This document shows positions 11,521 through 22,300 of a stretch of DNA of 64,000 nt, piece by piece. The position numbers and the translations under genes were made by a program. Below the pieces are notes generated by a model. That model had not been told where the DNA came from and made no database searches. It worked only from the letters and a program-made list of their open reading frames with translations. Source of the DNA: Bondarzewia mesenterica (lineage: Eukaryota > Basidiomycota > Agaricomycetes > Russulales > Bondarzewiaceae); the NCBI GenBank assembly GCA_004802705.1, contig SGPL01000044.1, forward strand, positions 12,475-76,474, given 5' to 3'. Numbering within the stretch: the first letter of the stretch is position 1; each line of letters opens with the position of its first letter.

Positions 11521-12131
11521 TCAAACCCCCTTCGTGTACAACGCACTCTTCATATCAAGGGCGCCGCTCCCACGACTGTCATTCTTGCTCCCCCACTTCG
11601 TGGAACTGAGGCCCTCTCCCGCCTCCTCCTTACCCTTCTGGAGAATTTGTGTTACAACCTCGGTGTCAACATGCGTGCCGAAAACGGTATCCAGTTCTTG
11701 TTTCGATGGTTTGCCGAGGAGTCCCTGAGAGCCCTGACCTGAATGCAGGACCTCGAATGCTGATGACCATGGTGAGCGAATGAAAGAACAGCCACGTTTG
11801 AGTAAATCGCATACAATCGACAACCTCAACTAATGGGATGGTGCTGGATTTCAAAAAGTCAGTGACTTGCATACTCAGGCCAAACAAGGGTTTATTCACG
11901 TGTCTGCGAAACAACTAGATGTTAGCAAATGGTAAGCGCAATCCATACTGCCATCATTACTCACCACCCTCTTTCCACTTCTTGTACTAGTCAACGGATA
12001 CGCGATCAGCATGGATGAACACAACCAGTAATACGATTCAAACTCACTTCGACTGGGTTGACGATGATCATAAAGACATCTGTGGCGTTGTTGTCTGGCT
12101 TATAGACAACCTTGGTGAGTGATTTTCCCAT
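11521..12131 (-). CDS. RTC3: Small SBDS N-terminal-domain protein (Rtc3/Hgh1-like)
   Basis: Five exons encode 125 residues: 12131-12048, 11986-11965, 11903-11900, 11843-11815 and 11759-11521. The joined protein opens MGKSLTKVVYKPD, continues through EYKKWKEGGDTTIPLVEVV and DSFEVLHSGQGSQGLLG, then SKQELDTVFG and QILQKGKEEA. This is the layout of the free-standing SBDS N-domain (FYSH) protein known as Rtc3 in budding yeast, linked there to RNA metabolism and stress. The third exon is only four bases (ACAC). It is required to keep frame and to give the conserved GDTTIP. Every junction is GT-AG and in phase. The extreme C-terminus is less certain. Confidence 0.85.
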
Positions 12132-12528
12132 GATGATGATGATGTATTAGCAGCAGTGACAGGAAGGAAAATCGAGTCAAGTCTTATGGCGTAGCAAGGT
12201 GAGCGTTAGGAAGAGCGTTTTGCATCGAGGAGTATAAGAGGACAATACAGGCAGTGACGTCATGGACTATTGGGCTGGCTTCTTTCGCGGTCATAGACAA
12301 CTCGTGATGCGTGACAGCGTGATGGCGTTGATTAGATTGAATTGCGAGGCCCAGTGAGCATCGTGTATGCCATCGATAAATCCTAAATTTGTTTGCCGAA
12401 ACCAAAATCGTGGAGCAGAGCATGCGGCGGTCTCCAAGGTTGTGCGTTGTTCAGAAAAAAAAAAATTACACGTGTGCGAGGATGCGTGTCAACACGCGTG
12501 TGACAAACCAGCACCTAGCACCAACCAG
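12132..12528. other. Short intergenic stretch
   Basis: About 400 bp between the Rtc3-like start and the original MLH3 stop. It would hold the Rtc3-like promoter and the MLH3 3' UTR. A (CAT/ATG)n-like run lies just upstream of the Rtc3-like ATG. No gene is seen. Confidence 0.5.
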
Positions 12529-12929
12529 TCAACTATCAGGTTGCAGGAATTTCCAGTCAACAATTCCTCCTCGTCGCTTTTGACTACTGCTGGGCGCCAA
12601 ATTTGCAAGCGGGACTAACGATGGTCTGCCCCAAACCTAGTTCAATATGCGATATATTAGGCCTGTAGTTAGAAGAAATCTCACCTTCCATGGGCACATT
12701 GAAATGGAAACGCGGTGTCTGCCAACTGTTGAATCAAACGCTCACACTGTTTCAGGGTGAGCGAGTCGTTGAACATAATGGCGCCTAGGTGCAAAATGCA
12801 AAATGAGCACGAGACATAAATAACACATTGTGCAATCCAGACGAGATGAGTCTCGGCCCTAGCTTACCTCGACATGCTCTAGAGTTAACCAGGTTGAGAA
12901 GCCCACGTGGACACCAGCGGAGAGCTTTC
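12529..12929 (-). pseudogene. MLH3: MLH3, detached C-terminal exons
   Basis: Last part of the MutL-homologue MLH3, cut off from the rest by the transposon at 12930-19292. Exons are 12929-12868 (ALRWCPRGLLNLVNSRACRG), 12784-12685 (AIMFNDSLTLKQCERLIQQL, then FPFQCAHGR) and 12625-12529 (PSLVPLANL to the stop at 12529). The introns are normal GT-AG. The ACR motif (codons 12869-12877) and the CxHGRP motif help build the metal site of MutL-type endonucleases, and both lie here, away from the DQHA motif at 19789-19800. No start codon or promoter is evident, so this part is probably not translated as MLH3. The 8 bp at 12922-12929 are the target-site duplication and belong to the MLH3 frame. Confidence 0.9.
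12922..12929. repeat. Target-site duplication, left copy
   Basis: GAGCTTTC, identical to 19293-19300 and directly abutting the left inverted repeat. Each copy supplies the Lys-Ala codons of MLH3 on the minus strand. Confidence 0.92.
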
Positions 12930-12951
12930 GAGAATATGGTCATTCCAAGGG
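12930..12951. repeat. Left terminal inverted repeat
   Basis: 22 bp beginning GAGAATATGG and ending in the core CATTCCAAGGG (12941-12951). The core is an exact reverse complement of 19271-19281. Confidence 0.9.
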
Positions 12952-13075
12952 ACGCGGCGCCGCAGGCAGCTGAAAATGGGCCCAGGGAGTCCGGGGGCGG
13001 CGTGGCCAGAGGCTGCCAAGGGAGGTCCATGGCCTGCGCGTATGTCTGACAGCAGTCCGACAGCGCACCGCTTCT

Positions 13076-13091
13076 CGAGCGCCGGCGCTCG
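13076..13091. repeat. Subterminal 16-bp perfect palindrome
   Basis: CGAGCGCCGGCGCTCG, perfectly self-complementary, about 150 bp inside the left end of the transposon. It could bind a dimeric protein such as the transposase; that role is inference. Confidence 0.8.
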
Positions 13092-13297
13092 CTGGCCAAC
13101 ATGTAGGTTTATTTGGTTTGTTCGCTTCCTGTCGAGTCCGACGATATGGGGCAGATCTTGAGTCATGTACGATCCAAATGACATTCTCTCGGAAATATGG
13201 ATTTTAGCAGAGTATGGTATTGGTACATACTTAGGGGCCTGCAGCTCTTAATACACAGGGGTTCGAGGCCTGCTCGCTCTCCACCACTATCACCACC

Positions 13298-14022
13298 ATG
13301 TATCCTGAACACGACCGGCACATCTCAGACTTCCTTACGGTCTGTCGAGCAAACACCACACTCATTCACCCATCATTTTTACGAATGCCGTCGTTCAATC
13401 AGTGCATCTTTTGCGAACACCGCCCCGCTCCGATGCCATTTGGCCTCACGGGCACTCACTTTGCAGTCGTCTTTGAAGTAATCGGTTGTATAATGAACAG
13501 AGACTGCTTTCTCACAATGAGCGGAGATGCTGAGCTATTTAGTGACTCAGAGAATGCTCGCGATGCACACGAAAGCCCAGTCGCTTCGTGTTGGCTAGAA
13601 GCACCTACGGACGACGGTGCACAATTCACGGAGTGGCAGCAAATGTTGCAACGCTTGCATGGCATTGCCAGGAGTGCTGGTGACATGCGGCATCGCTGCG
13701 AATTGTTTTCGAGTGAGGGCGGCCCGTTCTACACTCGACAGTATCTCCAGGTGTCGTGGCCTTTGCGTGCTCTCGACGATGTGTGTACCCTATCATTTAA
13801 CTTGATATCCCTTTGCTAACTGTTCTGTAGGCTGGCACTTGGGCTTCTCGCGCCGATCGACTTCCAATCTTCAATTCACGCCGAGAGCACTGTCCGCCAA
13901 GAACGCTTCAGGATGTTCCGTTTGGGCGGTCTGTACGTGCCCGCTTCTCACAGTGGAGTGGACCGACAGATGATGGCCGAGGTATTGTTGCTGCCAGGCT
14001 TTTATCTATGCACATTCTTTGA
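13298..14022 (+). CDS. Transposon-borne protein of unknown function (ORF1, 224 residues)
   Basis: Two exons, 13298-13780 and 13831-14022, joined in phase over a 50-bp GT-AG intron, encode 224 residues. I do not recognise the family. The first part (MYPEHDRHISDFLTVCR) is followed by a C-rich segment (FNQCIFCEHRPAPMPFG) whose CxxC plus His could bind metal. Next come a hydrophobic strand (THFAVVFEVIGCIM) and a charged half ending in DVPFGRSVRARFSQW and DDGRGIVAARLL. There is no signal peptide or long membrane helix. It lies wholly inside the transposon, ahead of and parallel to the transposase. It may therefore be an accessory transposition factor, a regulator or passenger cargo. The start at 13298 is a true ATG and no in-frame stop occurs. 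Confidence 0.75.
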
Positions 14023-14369
14023 TTCTTGTCCTCGTTTTTGACTGTAGCTTAGTTCTTAGACCAGTATTTGCTTTCCTTTCCCTGCATCAGGTTTTTTCGC
14101 AGTGTTGAACTTGTATACTATGAATGTATGATTATTTTACCTCACTGTACTCTTCTTCATATCAAAACAGATGTCAATCTGAAAGGTTGTTTGATTGTGA
14201 TGATAAAGACCCGCTCGAGCTAAACATGTTTCAGAAATTTACGAAAGTTGGCTGGCGAATTTGCATCCGCTAGGAGTGCATTATAACGAGCTCTTGATGA
14301 GCTCCTATGTCCCTCGCTACTGTCCTTTCCCCTGCTCCTCCACCAGAGTTGAGCACATGCCACGCAAAA

Positions 14370-17300
14370 ATGTCTGCCTTTGAGCCATCAGTCATCCGCA
14401 CTATCATAAAAAAAAACCCTACCAGCATCCGAACGCCGCAGTTTCGAAAACAGGTGGAATTCGGCTGTATGTCAATCACTCTCTTCATTCAGAAAAAAAA
14501 GGGATTGAGAGAACGACTTACTTTAGGTGACGAAACGTGTTGCATCTTGGACGAAACATCGTGCGACACAGTCACGATCAGCAGCACAGCTGGAGTGGGA
14601 AGCCCACGTCGTAGAATATGTGAGCTACATCTACGACGCAACAAAGGTCCATGCGAATGCAAAGAAGGGCACGATTCCACCGACCTTGGTGAATGATATC
14701 CCGATTTACGGACCACGATTTCTGCCGCCAGATTATCTGCACCTTCAGAAGCGTCAATCTGTGCCTCTCATAGAGCCGGTGACTGCTTACCTGAAGCCTC
14801 TCCACATCATCCATCCCTTTTATTATGGAAACCTCGCGCGCTGTCCTCAGTGTCATTCAGAAGATGTTCGCTGGGATGGCTGGACAGCGACGGGCCATCG
14901 AGAACTACATGGGATTCGAAGAGAGGAGGGGGCTTTGGGATATCAGCTACGTTGCAAGCCGTGTGAGGAGAAGCATGGCAAACATACCCGAGGTGGAGAA
15001 AAGGGGCATTTTTGCTTCGCGACGACTAATTCCACCTTTTGGGAAAAGTGGGAGTACTGGGAGATGCCGCGTAAGTCTGTTCACCAAGTGTATGGATAAA
15101 TACTGACTGTTGTGCATACCGTGTGCCTCCATGCGGTACACAATCAGGTGGTATTCCCATCTTTTTCCAGCGCTGTGGTGTTACGCGGGAGCTATTCGAT
15201 TTTATTGCTGAGCTGCGTCCATCAACTACATCAATCGGTCTCGAAGAGAATATAAAACGTGCGTTATTGACATACCTACCTCCGTTCATGCGATGACGAC
15301 CCTGTGTAGAGCTGCACCTTCTTGAATACCACCAGCGGGAGCTCGAATACCTGAATAGCTATAAAAGCCGTCAAGTCTCACCATTTAAGCCATGTGCGCT
15401 TCAAAGCTTCTCAGCGCCGCACGAGATGGGTTACGAAGACACATCAATTACCCATGATTTGGTCACAGATATCTTGCTGGAGTTTGACAGGCGCACTCGA
15501 CGTGCAGAATCAACAGAGTATCTACAAACGTTATCAGGTGTGTGACCTCGCTGCATCAGGAATCCAACGTTTACTTACCAATTGGTTCCCACTAGGGATC
15601 TGCCTTTCTCTCGACAACACATTCAAGTCTGCGGGAAAGGCGTCCATTGCCGACACGCAGCTCGCGCGTACGAAGCTGATGAAGGGAGGTATACTCAGCA
15701 TCATCAACGAGAAAAATGAGATCCTCGCTTGGGTGAGTGATACTTCACCAGTGCCGAAAATGTCGAGAACCGACTCTGATGAAGAAAACAGCGCTTGTGT
15801 CAAAGTCAAGCCAATGCCGAGATTGAAGAAATCCTTCAAGGTATCCATCGCCGTTGCATCGAGCTCAAGGTTCAGCTGCCGGAGATGGTGATTGTCGACA
15901 ACTGTTGCCATGTCCGAGGTGCCGTTCGAAGGGCGTTGCCGGATGTGCAAGTCGCACTCGACACGTACCATTTTTTGATGCGGTATGAACACCTCTTCAG
16001 CTGCTATCACTCACCTGCATGGACGCTGACTTCTGTACACCACAGGTATCTCGCCACCATTGTGAATGGTACAAGAAACCCGCATCGATCTGCCGTTGCG
16101 AAAGATGTGATAGACTCGATACTGATGACTCGAGCTGGTGGGGGCAAAAGCGCTGAGTATTGGAGCCGAGACGAGCAGGAGCAGCACCTACAGTTGATGT
16201 ATGAAAGATGGATGATGAAGGGAGGGGTCTGGTCTGCAGCAGCATCCAAGGTGAGTCTTGCCCCTTGCTTGTGCATGTCGAAATGCATCACCGAGAGCTC
16301 TGTTTTCAAATTTCAAGGTCCATGCTGATCAGTTGGCTCATGTCAAAAAAGGCTGCCTCACTCGTCGCCGCCAGGACATTCGTTCTGATGGCAGCCGAAT
16401 CGAGGGATCACATAAGGGGTGGAACTCAATCCAGCGATCGTTCGCAAGCGGCCTTGAGGTCTTCGTCGCCTTAGCCCATGACTTTGTGCTTCGCCGCAAT
16501 GTGCGAATCGCATTGTCTTCTGGCACCTCTTCTTTCATCATATCAACTCACGGTTCACATCATCTCCGCCTCGTAAATCACGTCGCTGGCCTATGGAACT
16601 CCTTAGTGGAGATTGAGAGTGGTAGAGTTGGGAAGGGCACGAACTTAAAGGGTCGACCTCGACTTCTCTCTGTCTCGAGCCAGGAGACATTCGGTCTCGT
16701 TCAATCAGATTATTCCATTACATTTAGCGGACTCCTGCCCATCAAGGACGAGGACCTCGAAGAGCCCATCAACTTACTACAACGGGCAGCAAAAGACGAG
16801 TTTGAACCTGCAGCGATCATGCAGTCCATGCAGATCGATCCGGCACTCCTTCTCAAGCCGCAAATCACCCATACGCCCATCCGCTCATCTGGCTCTTCCA
16901 CTCTGCGCAACCAGCCACCACAGGCTACAGCAACTCGAGTTTCAACAGCTACAAGGTCTATTGGCAGCTGCGAAATGGGAGCGCTTAATGCTGCATTGAC
17001 AGCCACTATGTCAGCATCTCGCAGCAGTACCCCGATGGCGACAAAACCTGCTCTGGAGGTAAAGAGGGAGTACATATGGCAGGGCACTGCCATGGTGAGC
17101 CGTTTCGAGTGATGCGGCTCCGCAGACTCTGATGTCTTCTAGGACTTAACACGCGAGCTGCCCGATAAGGTTGTTGACCTCACACTTGACGAGAGCGCTC
17201 TGCCTGTCTTTAGTCGAGCAGTCGGCACCCAATCCACCACCTTTGCTGCCACTGCTGGCTTTGCCATGCAGTTCCCTCTTGAGTCCCATGGAGAGCATGT

Positions 17301-18921
17301 CGACAGGGTCATCTTGGTAAGTCTTACTGCTTGCATGTACAAGCATCTGCAACTGTTGTGTGTTGCAGGACCTAACACGGGACTCTGATCCAACCGACGA
17401 CCTCGAGCCCGCAGTCAGCAGCATCCATGTCGCATCCACTGCCGATGTCTCGCCGGATCCCGTGCGTCTCATTATGGGCCCGTCTCCCAGTCCACCAAAG
17501 CGCAAGGCTTGCTCGTCTGAACAGGAAGTTGAAGAGGGACTCATGCGGAAGAGAGTTCGTGCTGGCGAGGGTCGCGTCGATGATGGAGACATTATAGTGG
17601 TGCGTCCGTGAATTTGTGCTCTCTACTCTTTTCGCCTTTTTGTGTAGCTTACCCATCGCTTGCTACAGGTTTCAAGCTCAACGGCTTCCGCACTTTCCAG
17701 CCCGCAAGTTCCGGGTCAGACTTCCATCAGCACGTTCTTCCAACCTCACCGAAATAGCGCGGGACAGCTCCGGGCCATCACAGCTTCAAAGTCGGCATCA
17801 GCGCCGAGCGCGGTTGCTCCCAAGACAGACGGTGACGACTCAACCACCCGAGATACCCCCTCGCAACCCCTTTCTGCCGCTCTTCCCCTCCCCGACTTAC
17901 CTGGCCTCTCGCGCTCGCAACGCATCTTTGCAATTTACACCGGCATAGACACGCGCGCGCTGTCGATCTCGTCGAATCACGAGTTCTATCTGTTCATGGA
18001 CATGCGCTTGGAGGAGAAGTGGGCGTCGTTCGCCATGAACTCACGGAAATGGGTCGTCGCAACAGCCGCTTACAACGTGAGGCTCCAGGCCATGAACAGC
18101 TCCAAGGGTCTCCAGGCGATCACGAAGAATCCGCAGGCGCTCCTGAACAAGCTCAGCGAGATCGAGGCAACCATCATCCAAAGGATCAGTACGAGCAACT
18201 ACCTCTGTACGTCCTCTCCCCCCTTTCGATTTTGGGCACAGTGTCAGGGCACTTACAGGATGCACACACAACAACAGCACGAAACGGCACCGACACGTTC
18301 TGGCGGAAGCACTGCGCGGCCGTCTCGCTCACGAAGTCAGAAACGGGCGTCAGCAGCGCAGACGGCATGGCTCGCAAGCCGGTACGGTATCGTCTCTCGC
18401 TCTTTCGCGCTCTTTTCGCGTTGTCTGTGGAACTGACTGACCTCCCGTGCCTTTTCTTTTTCTGACAGCGGAAGCCTCAGACGTGCGGGCGCTGTCGCGT
18501 CGTCAAGTACTCGGGCGGCGTCGGTTCCGATGCCAACCACAAGAAACAGCACTGCTCGGACGGTGTCAAGCCGAAGGACACCGCCGACGAGCTGCCCGAC
18601 TGGCCACAGCCGCTCGGCATCTTCACGAAGGGGTCGCACTTCCACCCCATCGCTTTCCTGATGACCATTCGCGAGATGTACGAGCGCGTCGTGATCGTGG
18701 GCGAGGGCGGCGCGCCGGAGGTCACCATGGAGGACGAGGCGTTCGCGAAAATGCTCACCCGCCGCACCGTGATCACCGCCGACGGACGCGTCCTCTTCCG
18801 CCTCTACGACTCGTTGACCCTCAGCCCGCCGATGCCGGACCTCGTCGTGGAGCACGAGGGCAAGCAGTGCCTGCGCGTCGACTGTCTTTCCGACTCGCAA
18901 GGCTCGGGCTCGGGAGCTTGA
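14370..18921 (+). CDS. Transposase with DUF6729-like zinc ribbon and acidic DDE-type core
   Basis: Thirteen exons join in phase to 1258 residues: 14370-14453, 14527-15070, 15148-15258, 15310-15537, 15596-15732, 15792-15982, 16046-16250, 16318-17094, 17143-17316, 17369-17599, 17669-18206, 18278-18381 and 18469-18921. A zinc ribbon (CPQC 134-137, CKPC 171-174) sits in a region I associate with DUF6729. The probable RNase H-fold core has LSLDNTF (Asp329), VIVDNCCHV (Asp404), VALDTYHFLMRY (Asp425) and SRIEGSHKGWN (Glu529). Which aspartates are catalytic is not certain. Downstream are DLTRE/DLTRD repeats, a basic PPKRK nuclear-signal-like stretch, a PIP-box-like QTSISTFF (911-918, bases 17717-17740) and a C-terminal CGRC/His/Cys cluster from residue 1114. 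The start at 14370 has A at -3; an in-frame ATG at 14307 is the alternative. The function as the element's transposase is inferred from position and core motifs. Confidence 0.85.
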
Positions 18922-19202
18922 GAGGTCGGGAGGGTCGGGAGGTCCGGAGGTTTGGGTTGATTGGGTCGCTTTCTTTACACTTTACACACACCTGTCATTT
19001 GTCACTCGTAGCTCTCGTTCTTGGTTCCTCTATCTGCAATGCCATCGCTCCGTTTCGCTTCCCTCCCCTCGCGCCGTGAGAGCGGGCAACGACTTGGCGA
19101 GAGAACGGAGCCCCAGGACGCGAACCCCTACGCTAGGGTTGGCCCTTGTCGAAGGCGCGCCTTGGGGTGGAATCCGGAAAAGGCAGGTCACGTGCGCGGG
19201 CG

Positions 19203-19252
19203 CAACGGTCGAAACGGTCGCAAACGGTCGCAAGTGGTCGCGAACGGTCGAC
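19203..19252. repeat. 10-bp tandem repeat, five copies
   Basis: Five near-identical units of the form AACGGTCGCA lie about 40-90 bp inside the right end of the transposon. They resemble subterminal transposase-binding arrays. I see no matching array near the left end. Confidence 0.85.
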
Positions 19253-19270
19253 GGTGCCCGTTCGGGAAAG

Positions 19271-19292
19271 CCCTTGGAATGGCGATGTTGCC
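19271..19292. repeat. Right terminal inverted repeat
   Basis: 22 bp whose reverse complement begins GGCAACATCG and ends in CATTCCAAGGG, matching the left repeat at 17 of 22 positions. It abuts the duplication at 19293. Confidence 0.9.
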
Positions 19293-19300
19293 GAGCTTTC
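19293..19300. repeat. Target-site duplication, right copy
   Basis: GAGCTTTC, identical to 12922-12929. On the minus strand it follows YWWQ of MLH3 and supplies the next two codons. Confidence 0.92.
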
Positions 19301-22300
19301 TGCCACCAGTAGACAACGTCAGGCGGTTCAGAGCTCGTATGATCATGTCCCGTGGACCGAGTGTTCGCAAGGCTGGGTATGCCAACCATCTCATACGTGG
19401 CCAGAAATTCCTTCAGTAGTTCCTGCAGTTCGCTAGATATGAAAAGCTAGGGAAAGAAAACGATGTTTGAAACGGCTCTCGGTTCACAGAAAGTGAAGAA
19501 AGAACTAAGCACCTTCTCGCTGATGACTTCTGGTACGGAACTAACCAAAACCTGCTCATATATGGCATCCTGACTTTCATACTCTGTGTCGCCGGAGAAC
19601 GTGAACCCCCATCTCTCCAAAACGGCTTTCGCTTCACCCGACCCCCGTAACACCTGTGCCTCTGCTCGTGTCAGAAGGACAGGCTGGTGCGGAACTAGCT
19701 CAACACGAAGGGCACTGGTTCCCTCCGCATCAAGGAATCCAACGCACAAGTCTTTCAGGAAACGCTCGACACGAACGCGCTCGGAGGCAGCATGCTGGTC
19801 AATGAGCACCAACGCGCGGTCCACCTCATGAGGGTTACCAGCACTGGTTACGGCACTATCGTCGCTAGGCGCATCGATAGCGCATACTATGAATTTCTTG
19901 TCAAGCTGACTGATGACCTTCGCCCGAAGCAAATCACTCCTTCTGAAACGTCCGATGAGGTATCGCTCAGAGGAGTGACTGAAAAACCGACTCAGATGGG
20001 CCGAAGAGTGTGAAGGCACACAGTCGGTGGCTGGGTCACTGCGGCAAGAGTTGGAAGGGAGGTCGAGAGAAATAGCTGGAATACGAGGTTCTGCGGGAGT
20101 GAATGATGTATTGGCCTATAATGATCGATGGACGTATACCATCGTGAATATCAGGACGTCCAAATTTTAGTGTATGTGCATGTTCGATACCTTTAAGGCG
20201 TTCAAAATCCACTGGGGTGTCTTCTTGTCGATGATGCCACTCTCTTGCTCCTGTATCTTCTTCAGCCGTCTTGTATCAACTAGCAATCTCTTGAACTCTG
20301 AGCCACTCTCAGGTTCTTTCGAGTCGGTCTCTTCAACGGTAGACTTCCCCCGCGGATACGAATTTCCGGTGCGCGAATCGACGACATACGTGATGCCAGA
20401 ATTCGGGTCTGTCCAAAACGACCTCGTCCGATGCATTATCTGTCTATCAATGCCAGAGCGATAAATGAACGAAACAAAGTCTGGTCATGCATTCACTTAC
20501 ATTAATCATTATAGGTGCAGATCCTGGTCGTGAATTTACATCAGGTTGGGTATGAACATCGCGGGGTATTGTAGGGATGACAGGGAGTGAAGCATAACGC
20601 TTCTTGGATGGAGATACGGCATCATAAAGCTTCCGTTTCTTTCTAGGTGAGTCCATCACCGCAGGCTGACTATGGACAACGAAACCATGACGAGCGAGAA
20701 ATGAGTAGATGACCGAACCAAGAAACGTGCAAACAGCTTCATTATTCTGAGTTTGGATGAAAGGTGAACATGCAAGACAAAAGGTGTGAAGATTTAAAAA
20801 TTACCAAGAATTGTACTGTAGCCTTGTCTGGCTCTAAGCAGTTATCCACATCTCGTCGAGAAATTGCGATATCAAGGGCATACACCGGCTTGAGTTCGGA
20901 CTTGCGAGGGGAACGACGAGTAGCTATGTCGTAGACAGATGAGATGCATACCAAATCCATGAAGAGATTGATTCGCACAAGGTCGAGGCAAGCTGGATTC
21001 ACCTGCTTCGTCGAATGCCTAGAAAGAGACAGAATTGTTTGTTTTTTCTGATGAAAAGAAAAGAAGGACGTACGTGCTTTGCAAAAGAGCTATTCGAGAA
21101 CTTTTGTTCAATAATGCGATGTAGATGACATGGCGCTAAAGGGTGTCGATTGACATCTATGTGGAGTGCGAGCTCAAATCTTGTGTCGGCAGAGCATACA
21201 CCGTTGAAGACGTACAGAGATACTGATGAGACTAAAGAACATTGCGTATGTGATGAGGACGCCCTCATGCGAACAGATTCAAAATAAATACCTTCGAGTG
21301 AGCCCCATTTAAGCTGATGAACCCGCGTATAGACATTTCGCCTCTAATGAGATCAATTTCGTCGACATGCTATCCCAAGAATCTTGAGCCCCCTGCGAGT
21401 CACTTCTTTCTAATCGTGAACATACCGCTGCAAGAGCCTTGCCATGTATATGCCGAAAAGCAGCTAGGGTTGAAGGGGTCTAGGTGATGGGTTGCAGCCT
21501 TCGACAGCCTATGCATTGAGCACCATGACGCACCTTCGGTATACTAGTAACCCTCCCTTTCTCAACCTGACCCTCCCTTTTCTTGTGAATATCTTCAAGA
21601 GAGAACGAGACGGAAGGAAAGACAAGAGCAAAACGTCTCTATGTCCTTGCGGACTAACTCTATAGTTTTCGAGGGGGGTGGATGCGACAGTCGACGGATA
21701 GGAAGCTGAATATAGAGAGAATATGTATTGATACTTTGAGGAAACAAAAGGATCGCCTACATTGTAGAACACATCACGGAGGCACACCACGGTTCCCGGA
21801 GTCTCTCTTCTCCAACGGACAGAAGGTCCATCATAAAGACATTGTCCACTCTGCATAACAAAACATTTGTTAGTGAGAGAGCTGCGCAATGGGTGCAAAC
21901 GTACCTTCAGAATAACACTCCAAGAGTCTCTGGACCTTGTTGTTCGCGATGAGATCTCAAGACAAGATATGTCTGCGGCCGACGCCAAGGCTAAAATAGC
22001 AACCGTCAGAACGGCACGCAACACAAGCAATTGGAAATCCAACCTTCACCACGAAATCCAAACGTCGAAATCGAGCCGGACGTGTCGGGTACGTATACTT
22101 TGGAGGTGTCTGTATTACAAGAACAGGAACACCTCAGATTGCTCTTCCAAACCTCTAGAATATACGGACTTACTGTACCTGCCCGCTTCGAGGCCCTTGC
22201 TCAACAGAGACATGCTGTCCCTGCTTATGCCTCCACCATTATCCTTGACCCAGCATTCCCAAATCTCACAGTCTAGACCGATCTCAATATGACCCGCTCC

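What the first reader, a model, noticed from the sequence alone, without database searches (positions are those of the whole stretch)
12922..19300. Complete 6.36-kb DNA transposon inserted in the MLH3 gene, with exact ends
MLH3 coding runs up to PPDVVYWWQKA at 19293 and resumes as ALRWCPRG at 12929, 6.4 kb away. GAGCTTTC flanks the insert on both sides, and 22-bp imperfect inverted repeats (17/22, core CATTCCAAGGG) abut the duplications. Removing the insert plus one duplication gives WWQKALRWCP in frame, a strong internal proof of the boundaries. The two coding frames inside are intact, so the insertion looks recent and the element possibly active.
Basis: seen in the sequence. Interest (0 to 1): 0.95.

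Follow-up and report, generated by a model that had tools for sequence, protein, structure and literature searches.

The report
Undescribed fungal transposon inside MLH3
A complete 6.4-kb jumping gene sits inside a coding exon of the meiosis and DNA-repair gene MLH3 of the mushroom Bondarzewia mesenterica; its predicted transposase belongs to a family that fits no curated family well, and the insertion is likely young and possibly still mobile.

Summary
Confirmed. Window 12930-19292 is a 6,363-bp DNA transposon with exact ends: 8-bp duplication GAGCTTTC, 17/22 terminal inverted repeats, MLH3 in frame across the joined flanks. Seven of seven Russulales MLH3 proteins aligned run unbroken through this site. 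Six other contigs of the assembly hold relatives; five of these keep an end that aligns to position 1 or 6363 of the element. The host is Bondarzewia mesenterica; its deposited MLH3 model runs into the element. A separate upstream ORF is conserved in a sister copy but has no database homologue. The transposase family (128 proteins) is not KDZ, carries DDE plus DxxH, folds most like IS256 transposases, and by sequence leans weakly to bacterial ISL3 while lying outside ISL3, IS256 and MULE profiles. So: a real insertion of a known kind, from a deep lineage for which I found no description. Activity, allele state and mechanism are untested.

The parts
12922..12929 (.). target-site duplication GAGCTTTC, left copy
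19293..19300 (.). target-site duplication GAGCTTTC, right copy
12930..19292 (+). complete transposon, 6,363 bp (strand of the transposase)
12930..12951 (+). left terminal inverted repeat, 22 bp
   Evidence: 17/22 to the right end; same end in C111 and C306
19271..19292 (-). right terminal inverted repeat, 22 bp
   Evidence: same end in C111, C559, C640, C112
19204..19250 (+). array of about five 10-bp units AACGGTCGCA next to the right end; possible transposase binding sites (inferred)
   Evidence: TRF 4.8 copies, 84% matches; fewer units in other copies; the single motif is not enriched in the window as a whole (5 matches, 3.66 expected)
13298..13783 (+). ORF1, at least 162 codons (possible further exon not settled); orphan protein
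   Evidence: 50% aa identity over 159 alignment columns to the C111 copy in one frame; 8 candidates, none at E<=0.001
14370..18921 (+). transposase gene, 13 exons, 1,258 aa predicted
   Evidence: hand-made splice model guided by relatives, 12 GT-AG introns of 48-87 bp; 49-52% and 40-46% identity to four relatives over the N- and C-terminal parts
15613..15615 (+). D329, first acidic residue of the predicted DDE triad
15897..15899 (+). D404, second acidic residue
15960..15971 (+). D425-x-x-H428, the D(2)H motif
16402..16404 (+). E529, third acidic residue
19294..22405 (-). MLH3, part upstream of the insertion (ends ...WWQKA)
   Evidence: P0121 and relatives
12684..12922 (-). MLH3, severed downstream part with ACR and CAHGR segments

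Best explanation
The 6,363 bp at 12930-19292 are a complete DNA transposon with imperfect inverted repeats and an 8-bp target-site duplication, inserted in a coding exon of MLH3 in Bondarzewia mesenterica, and its single 13-exon gene is predicted to encode a DDE transposase that likely moves it by cut-and-paste. Shown: the ends, the duplication, the reading frame of the empty site, relatives with the same ends elsewhere in the assembly, and conservation of the DDE-type residues and the DxxH motif. Inferred: the splice pattern; that the transposase binds the TIRs and perhaps the 10-bp right-end array, excises the element and joins it to target strands 8 bp apart; that MLH3 in this nucleus is null because its ACR and C(P)HGRP-type segments are severed; that the insertion is young. 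The transposase is a deep fungal lineage among the RNase H-type transposases that carry C/DxxH (as in IS256/MuDR and hAT), nearest by sequence to bacterial ISL3.
For: Ends, duplication and frame. Same ends in other copies. A second 8-bp duplication, AGGTTCCA, left of the C111 copy and right of the C559 copy. MLH3 unbroken in 7 of 7 relatives; deposited host protein runs into the element. One open 13-exon gene. D318, D393, D414, H417, E518 of P0001 invariant or at least 90% conserved in both alignments (56 and 45 rows). Model with pLDDT 80.5 best matched by ISCth4, an IS256-family transposase. Sister right ends 99.2% and 99.4% identical; no C-to-T decay in the window copy.
Against: Cut-and-paste itself is not shown; the best fold match, ISCth4, works by copy-out/paste-in. 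The C111 copy has different 8-bp flanks on its two sides, which I explain by a mis-join. No other copy in the assembly has both ends and an open gene: C111 has an in-frame stop in an aligned exon, C184 is decayed. The allele state is unknown. PF01610 finds nothing in this genome although it rings in 4 of 14 control genomes, so the ISL3 lean rests on relatives and profiles.
Confidence: 0.8

Rival explanations
1. It is a divergent MuDR/MULE element, perhaps already catalogued as such in Repbase or Dfam; it works as other MULEs do.
For: 8-bp duplication within the 8-11 bp of MULEs; [quoted passage not shown] IS256 is the bacterial relative of MULEs and the best fold match; 14 of 45 relatives touch PF10551 at E<=0.1, more than touch ISL3.
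Against: No PF10551 match of the window protein at E<=10; PF10551 finds 4 places in this genome, none in the element; profile comparison with own-genome MULEs weak (3 short rows, probability 8.1); the ISL3 comparison is stronger.
Confidence: 0.35
2. The element moves by copy-out/paste-in through a circle, as IS256 does, rather than by excision.
For: [quoted passage not shown] circular forms are also reported for some MULEs (passages).
Confidence: 0.2
3. The insertion is old, inactive or fixed, in an MLH3 that had already lost its function.
For: Only the occupied site is in the assembly.
Against: Both MLH3 parts are open in frame and conserved up to the joint; the duplications are identical; the transposase model is open; C-to-T decay as in C184 is absent.
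Confidence: 0.12
4. The junction is an assembly artefact.
For: 844 contigs, and the C111 copy of the family looks mis-joined.
Against: A mis-join would not create an exact 8-bp duplication abutting TIRs with in-frame MLH3 on both sides.
Confidence: 0.03

Closest known systems
ISL3 family of bacterial insertion sequences (PF01610, NCBIfam NF033550)
   Same: DDE with DxxH; best profile comparison (probability 87.7, E 3.4e-6); one relative, P0055, passes the Pfam cut-off (28.7 bits against 23); 8-bp duplication (ISL3 value recalled).
   Different: Window protein at 13.9 bits, below the cut-off; no PF01610 match in the genome; P0055 against 72,556 plasmid records at E<=10 gives one weak place (E 5); eukaryotic gene with 12 introns, about three times as long.
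IS256 / MuDR (MULE) transposases
   Different: Weaker by sequence than ISL3 (IS256 profile: probability 42.6, E 2.5e-4; own-genome MULE 8.1); no PF10551 match of the window protein.
KDZ (Kyakuja-Dileera-Zisupton)
   Same: Fungal host, cysteine clusters in the transposase, 8-bp duplication as in Zisupton. One relative (P0091) bears a CxC5-like name in a source.
   Different: PF18758 has 60 matches in this genome, none in the element or its copies; CxC5 only on C334; neither among the families listed for 45 relatives at E<=0.1.
hAT (Hermes)
   Different: No hAT Pfam family matched the window protein or is listed for 45 relatives; Hermes scores no better than retroviral integrases.

Membership tests
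DDE cut-and-paste DNA transposon (class II) | terminal inverted repeats and fixed-length target-site duplication | tested here: met
   17/22 TIR, GAGCTTTC; AGGTTCCA at a second site, inferred to be one insertion
DDE cut-and-paste DNA transposon (class II) | further copies with the same ends | tested here: met
   five other contigs with ends at position 1 or 6363
DDE cut-and-paste DNA transposon (class II) | RNase H-type transposase with DDE triad | tested here: met
   conserved residues, predicted fold of a relative
DDE cut-and-paste DNA transposon (class II) | excision and reinsertion | not testable with these tools
   needs an assay
KDZ | KDZ domain PF18758 | tested here: not met
   60 matches in this genome, 58 over the cut-off, none on C379 or the other copies
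KDZ | CxC5 cysteine cluster PF18718 | tested here: not met
   2 matches, both on C334
ISL3 | PF01610 above its curated cut-off | tested here: not met
   window protein 13.9 of 23 bits; no match in the genome; 1 relative, P0055, passes
ISL3 | 8-bp direct repeat | tested here: met
   8 bp here; the ISL3 value is recalled
MuDR/MULE | MULE domain PF10551 | tested here: not met
   no match of the window protein at E<=10; 14 of 45 relatives at E<=0.1, best 2.1e-4
MuDR/MULE | 8-11 bp duplication | tested here: met
   8 bp; range from PMC6446971, passage
MuDR/MULE | C/D(2)H signature and long helical insert between second D and E | tested here: met
   D425-x-x-H428; helices at 435-499 of the P0001 model; feature from PMC3942029, passage; not exclusive to MULEs
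IS256 | IS256 transposase profile | tested here: not met
hAT | hAT-type fold and domains | tested here: inconclusive

The most novel reading that the evidence does not exclude
Probability: 0.33. Interest if true: 0.68.

Novelty: new variant of a known kind. Interest (0 to 1): 0.46.

Why it matters
Large protein families of mushroom genomes are filed as 'hypothetical'; this element gives one of them (128 proteins at E<=0.001) its ends, its duplication length and a gene model, so that copies can be annotated. If the ISL3 link holds, it adds a bacterial-eukaryotic transposon pair that is absent from the list of Kojima and Bao (PMC10045372: part 1 of 5 of the text read; the word ISL3 does not occur in the paper). 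The insertion is also a natural MLH3 disruption whose allele state and effect on crossing over can be tested, and it shows that the deposited MLH3 model is a chimera with transposon sequence.

Tried and rejected
MITE search: the exact 11-bp core CATTCCAAGGG occurs 25 times in the genome (13 for the control pattern). Of the 21 sites outside this element and the C112 pair, the outer 11 bases match the left or right TIR at 7 of 11 at best (C513, L040); no second end was seen in the 2 kb fetched there. So no MITE burst was found by this exact core; copies with a changed core (C111, C559, C640, C306) are missed by it.

Splicing of the element out of MLH3 transcripts: no GT lies at the upstream junction on the MLH3 strand, so splicing that restores the frame exactly looks impossible; cryptic sites were not tested.

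Empty-site test for AGGTTCCA: joined C111 and C559 flanks give frames of 32 to 100 codons across the joint, which decides nothing; that site rests on the 8-bp match and copy identity.

ORF1 from one sequence did not fold (pLDDT 41). The profile of A2 finds no convincing solved structure by sequence (4 matches, E 0.81 or worse). No Rfam match at gathering score in 12000-20000. An ISL3 query found no confirmed relative in genome contigs. In one search no MULE or P-element row is among the 50 shown; nothing is concluded. Foldseek's weaker rows are taken as chance. The first BLASTP of the gene model returned nothing because of an input error and was repeated.

Literature: no paper in the held library holds both 'ISL3' and 'Agaricomycetes'; the five terms together gave 0. 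Searches gave no description of this family in titles, abstracts and the passages I read. Repbase and Dfam were not on hand, and most subscription journals are not in the library, so it may be catalogued.

Full report
Where it is. The window is contig C379:12475-76474 of a 33-Mb, 844-contig assembly. The MLH3 query finds P0121, EW146_g1688 of Bondarzewia mesenterica, 100% identical over 83% of the query, on a contig of 101,107 bp; C379 has the same length. The host is therefore taken as this mushroom (Russulales, from my own knowledge).

The observation. GAGCTTTC flanks 12930-19292 on both sides; the 22-bp ends match at 17 of 22 positions; with the flanks joined and one duplication dropped, MLH3 reads WWQKALRWCPRG in frame. 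Among 57,621 position pairs at the same spacing in the window this is the only one with identical 8-bp flanks. Seven other Russulales MLH3 proteins were aligned out of 596 hits (120 listed): P0123, P0124, P0126, P0127, P0131, P0132, P0139. In 7 of 7 the sequence W(Q/H)KALR(W/S)CP runs through unbroken; the deposited B. mesenterica protein instead continues into the element (RQHRHSKGFPER...) and lacks the ACR and CAHGR segments. These I take for the ACR and C(P)HGRP motifs of MutL-type nucleases (names recalled); loss of function is inferred. Each MLH3 flank queried is single in the assembly, so no empty allele is visible.

Other copies. DNA and protein queries find relatives on C111, C559, C640, C306, C112 and C184. 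Alignments reach element position 1 in C111 and C306 and position 6363 in C111, C559, C640 and C112 (twice, in tandem); C184 is internal only. A distant family member used as query found no further contig. The C111 copy is 6,295 bp from end to end, and its flanks differ (AGGTTCCA left, GCGCCTGT right); yet the C559 copy, whose contig starts inside an element, is followed by AGGTTCCA. C559 and C111 right parts are 99.2% identical over 1,120 bp, C640 and C111 99.4% over 651 bp. The simplest reading is that one insertion with the duplication AGGTTCCA was split, and C111 was joined to another copy by the assembler; this is an inference. Near-identical sisters on three contigs suggest recent movement of this subfamily, which is 72-74% identical to the window element at the right end. 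C306 (76 bp) and C112 (49 and 88 bp) hold only ends.

Genes. A splice model made by hand with these as guide has 13 exons (14370-18921; 12 GT-AG introns of 48-87 bp) and gives 1,258 aa. It is 49-52% identical to P0001, P0002, P0006 and P0031 from residue 1 to 682-748, and 40-46% over the C-terminal part. The first intron is the least certain. Upstream, ORF1 (13298-13783) matches the C111 copy at 50% identity over 159 columns in one frame, although DNA identity there is about 66%; this looks like a second gene under constraint. In C184 it is broken by stops. It has no homologue at E<=0.001 (8 candidates) and no usable model. The C111 copy carries one in-frame stop in an aligned transposase exon; its other stops fall where the alignment crosses introns or leaves the frame. 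The right end has about five 10-bp AACGGTCGCA units at 19204-19250, with fewer units in other copies; over the whole window the single motif is no more frequent than in shuffles.

Age. Over 2,875 aligned bases the window element and C184 differ at 644; 502 of these are C or G in the window against T or A in C184. Where C111 decides, 304 such changes fall in C184 and 107 the other way. C184 has a CpG ratio of 0.10 against 0.96 in the window element. The window copy shows no such decay. With identical duplications and an open gene model this supports a young insertion; it does not prove present activity.

How it most likely works (inferred unless marked). The transposase binds the unequal ends, its DDE centre cuts the element out, and the free ends attack a target with an 8-bp stagger, which is filled in to give the duplication (the duplication is shown). 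Cut-and-paste is preferred because eukaryotic DNA transposition is largely of that kind (PMC7780238, passage); copy-out/paste-in, the path of ISCth4, is the main mechanistic rival. ORF1 may be an accessory factor; there is no direct evidence.

Verdict. The thing is of an ordinary kind (DNA transposon with TIRs and an 8-bp duplication), from a widespread lineage for which I found no description in the papers searched, in an interesting place. Interest is moderate; the superfamily question is what could raise it.

Noticed in passing
L026 (G000:C184:25361-28244): A decayed internal copy with RIP-like change: 502 of 644 differences are C-to-T or G-to-A relative to the window element, CpG ratio 0.10; share of window C read as T by next base: CG 0.57, CA 0.43, CC 0.31, CT 0.17. 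[quoted passage not shown]
   Followed up: partly
L021 (C111:47355-53653) and L022 (C559:1-1120): AGGTTCCA is left of the C111 copy and right of the C559 copy, whose contig starts inside the element: probably one insertion split by the assembly, with C111 mis-joined to another copy.
   Followed up: partly
window 19030-19326 and P0121: The deposited MLH3 protein EW146_g1688 ends in sequence translated from the transposon.
   Followed up: yes
L025 (C112:62974-63184): Two tandem right ends of this family behind similar foreign sequence, with no left end seen nearby: perhaps a non-autonomous derivative.
   Followed up: no
L023 (C640), about locus position 2110: The near-identical sister copy breaks off 651 bp from its right end into unrelated sequence: a truncation or a mis-join.
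   Followed up: no
G000, many contigs: KDZ transposases are abundant in this genome, 60 matches, most with stops inside; a CxC5 domain lies on C334.
   Followed up: no
P0085 (Pisolithus marmoratus): A relative annotated as a septin-domain protein (PF00735) that covers 77% of the transposase query: a gene fusion or a wrong gene model.
   Followed up: no
L040 (C513:6800-6810): A lone site within 4 mismatches of the left TIR; no partner end in the 2 kb fetched.
   Followed up: no
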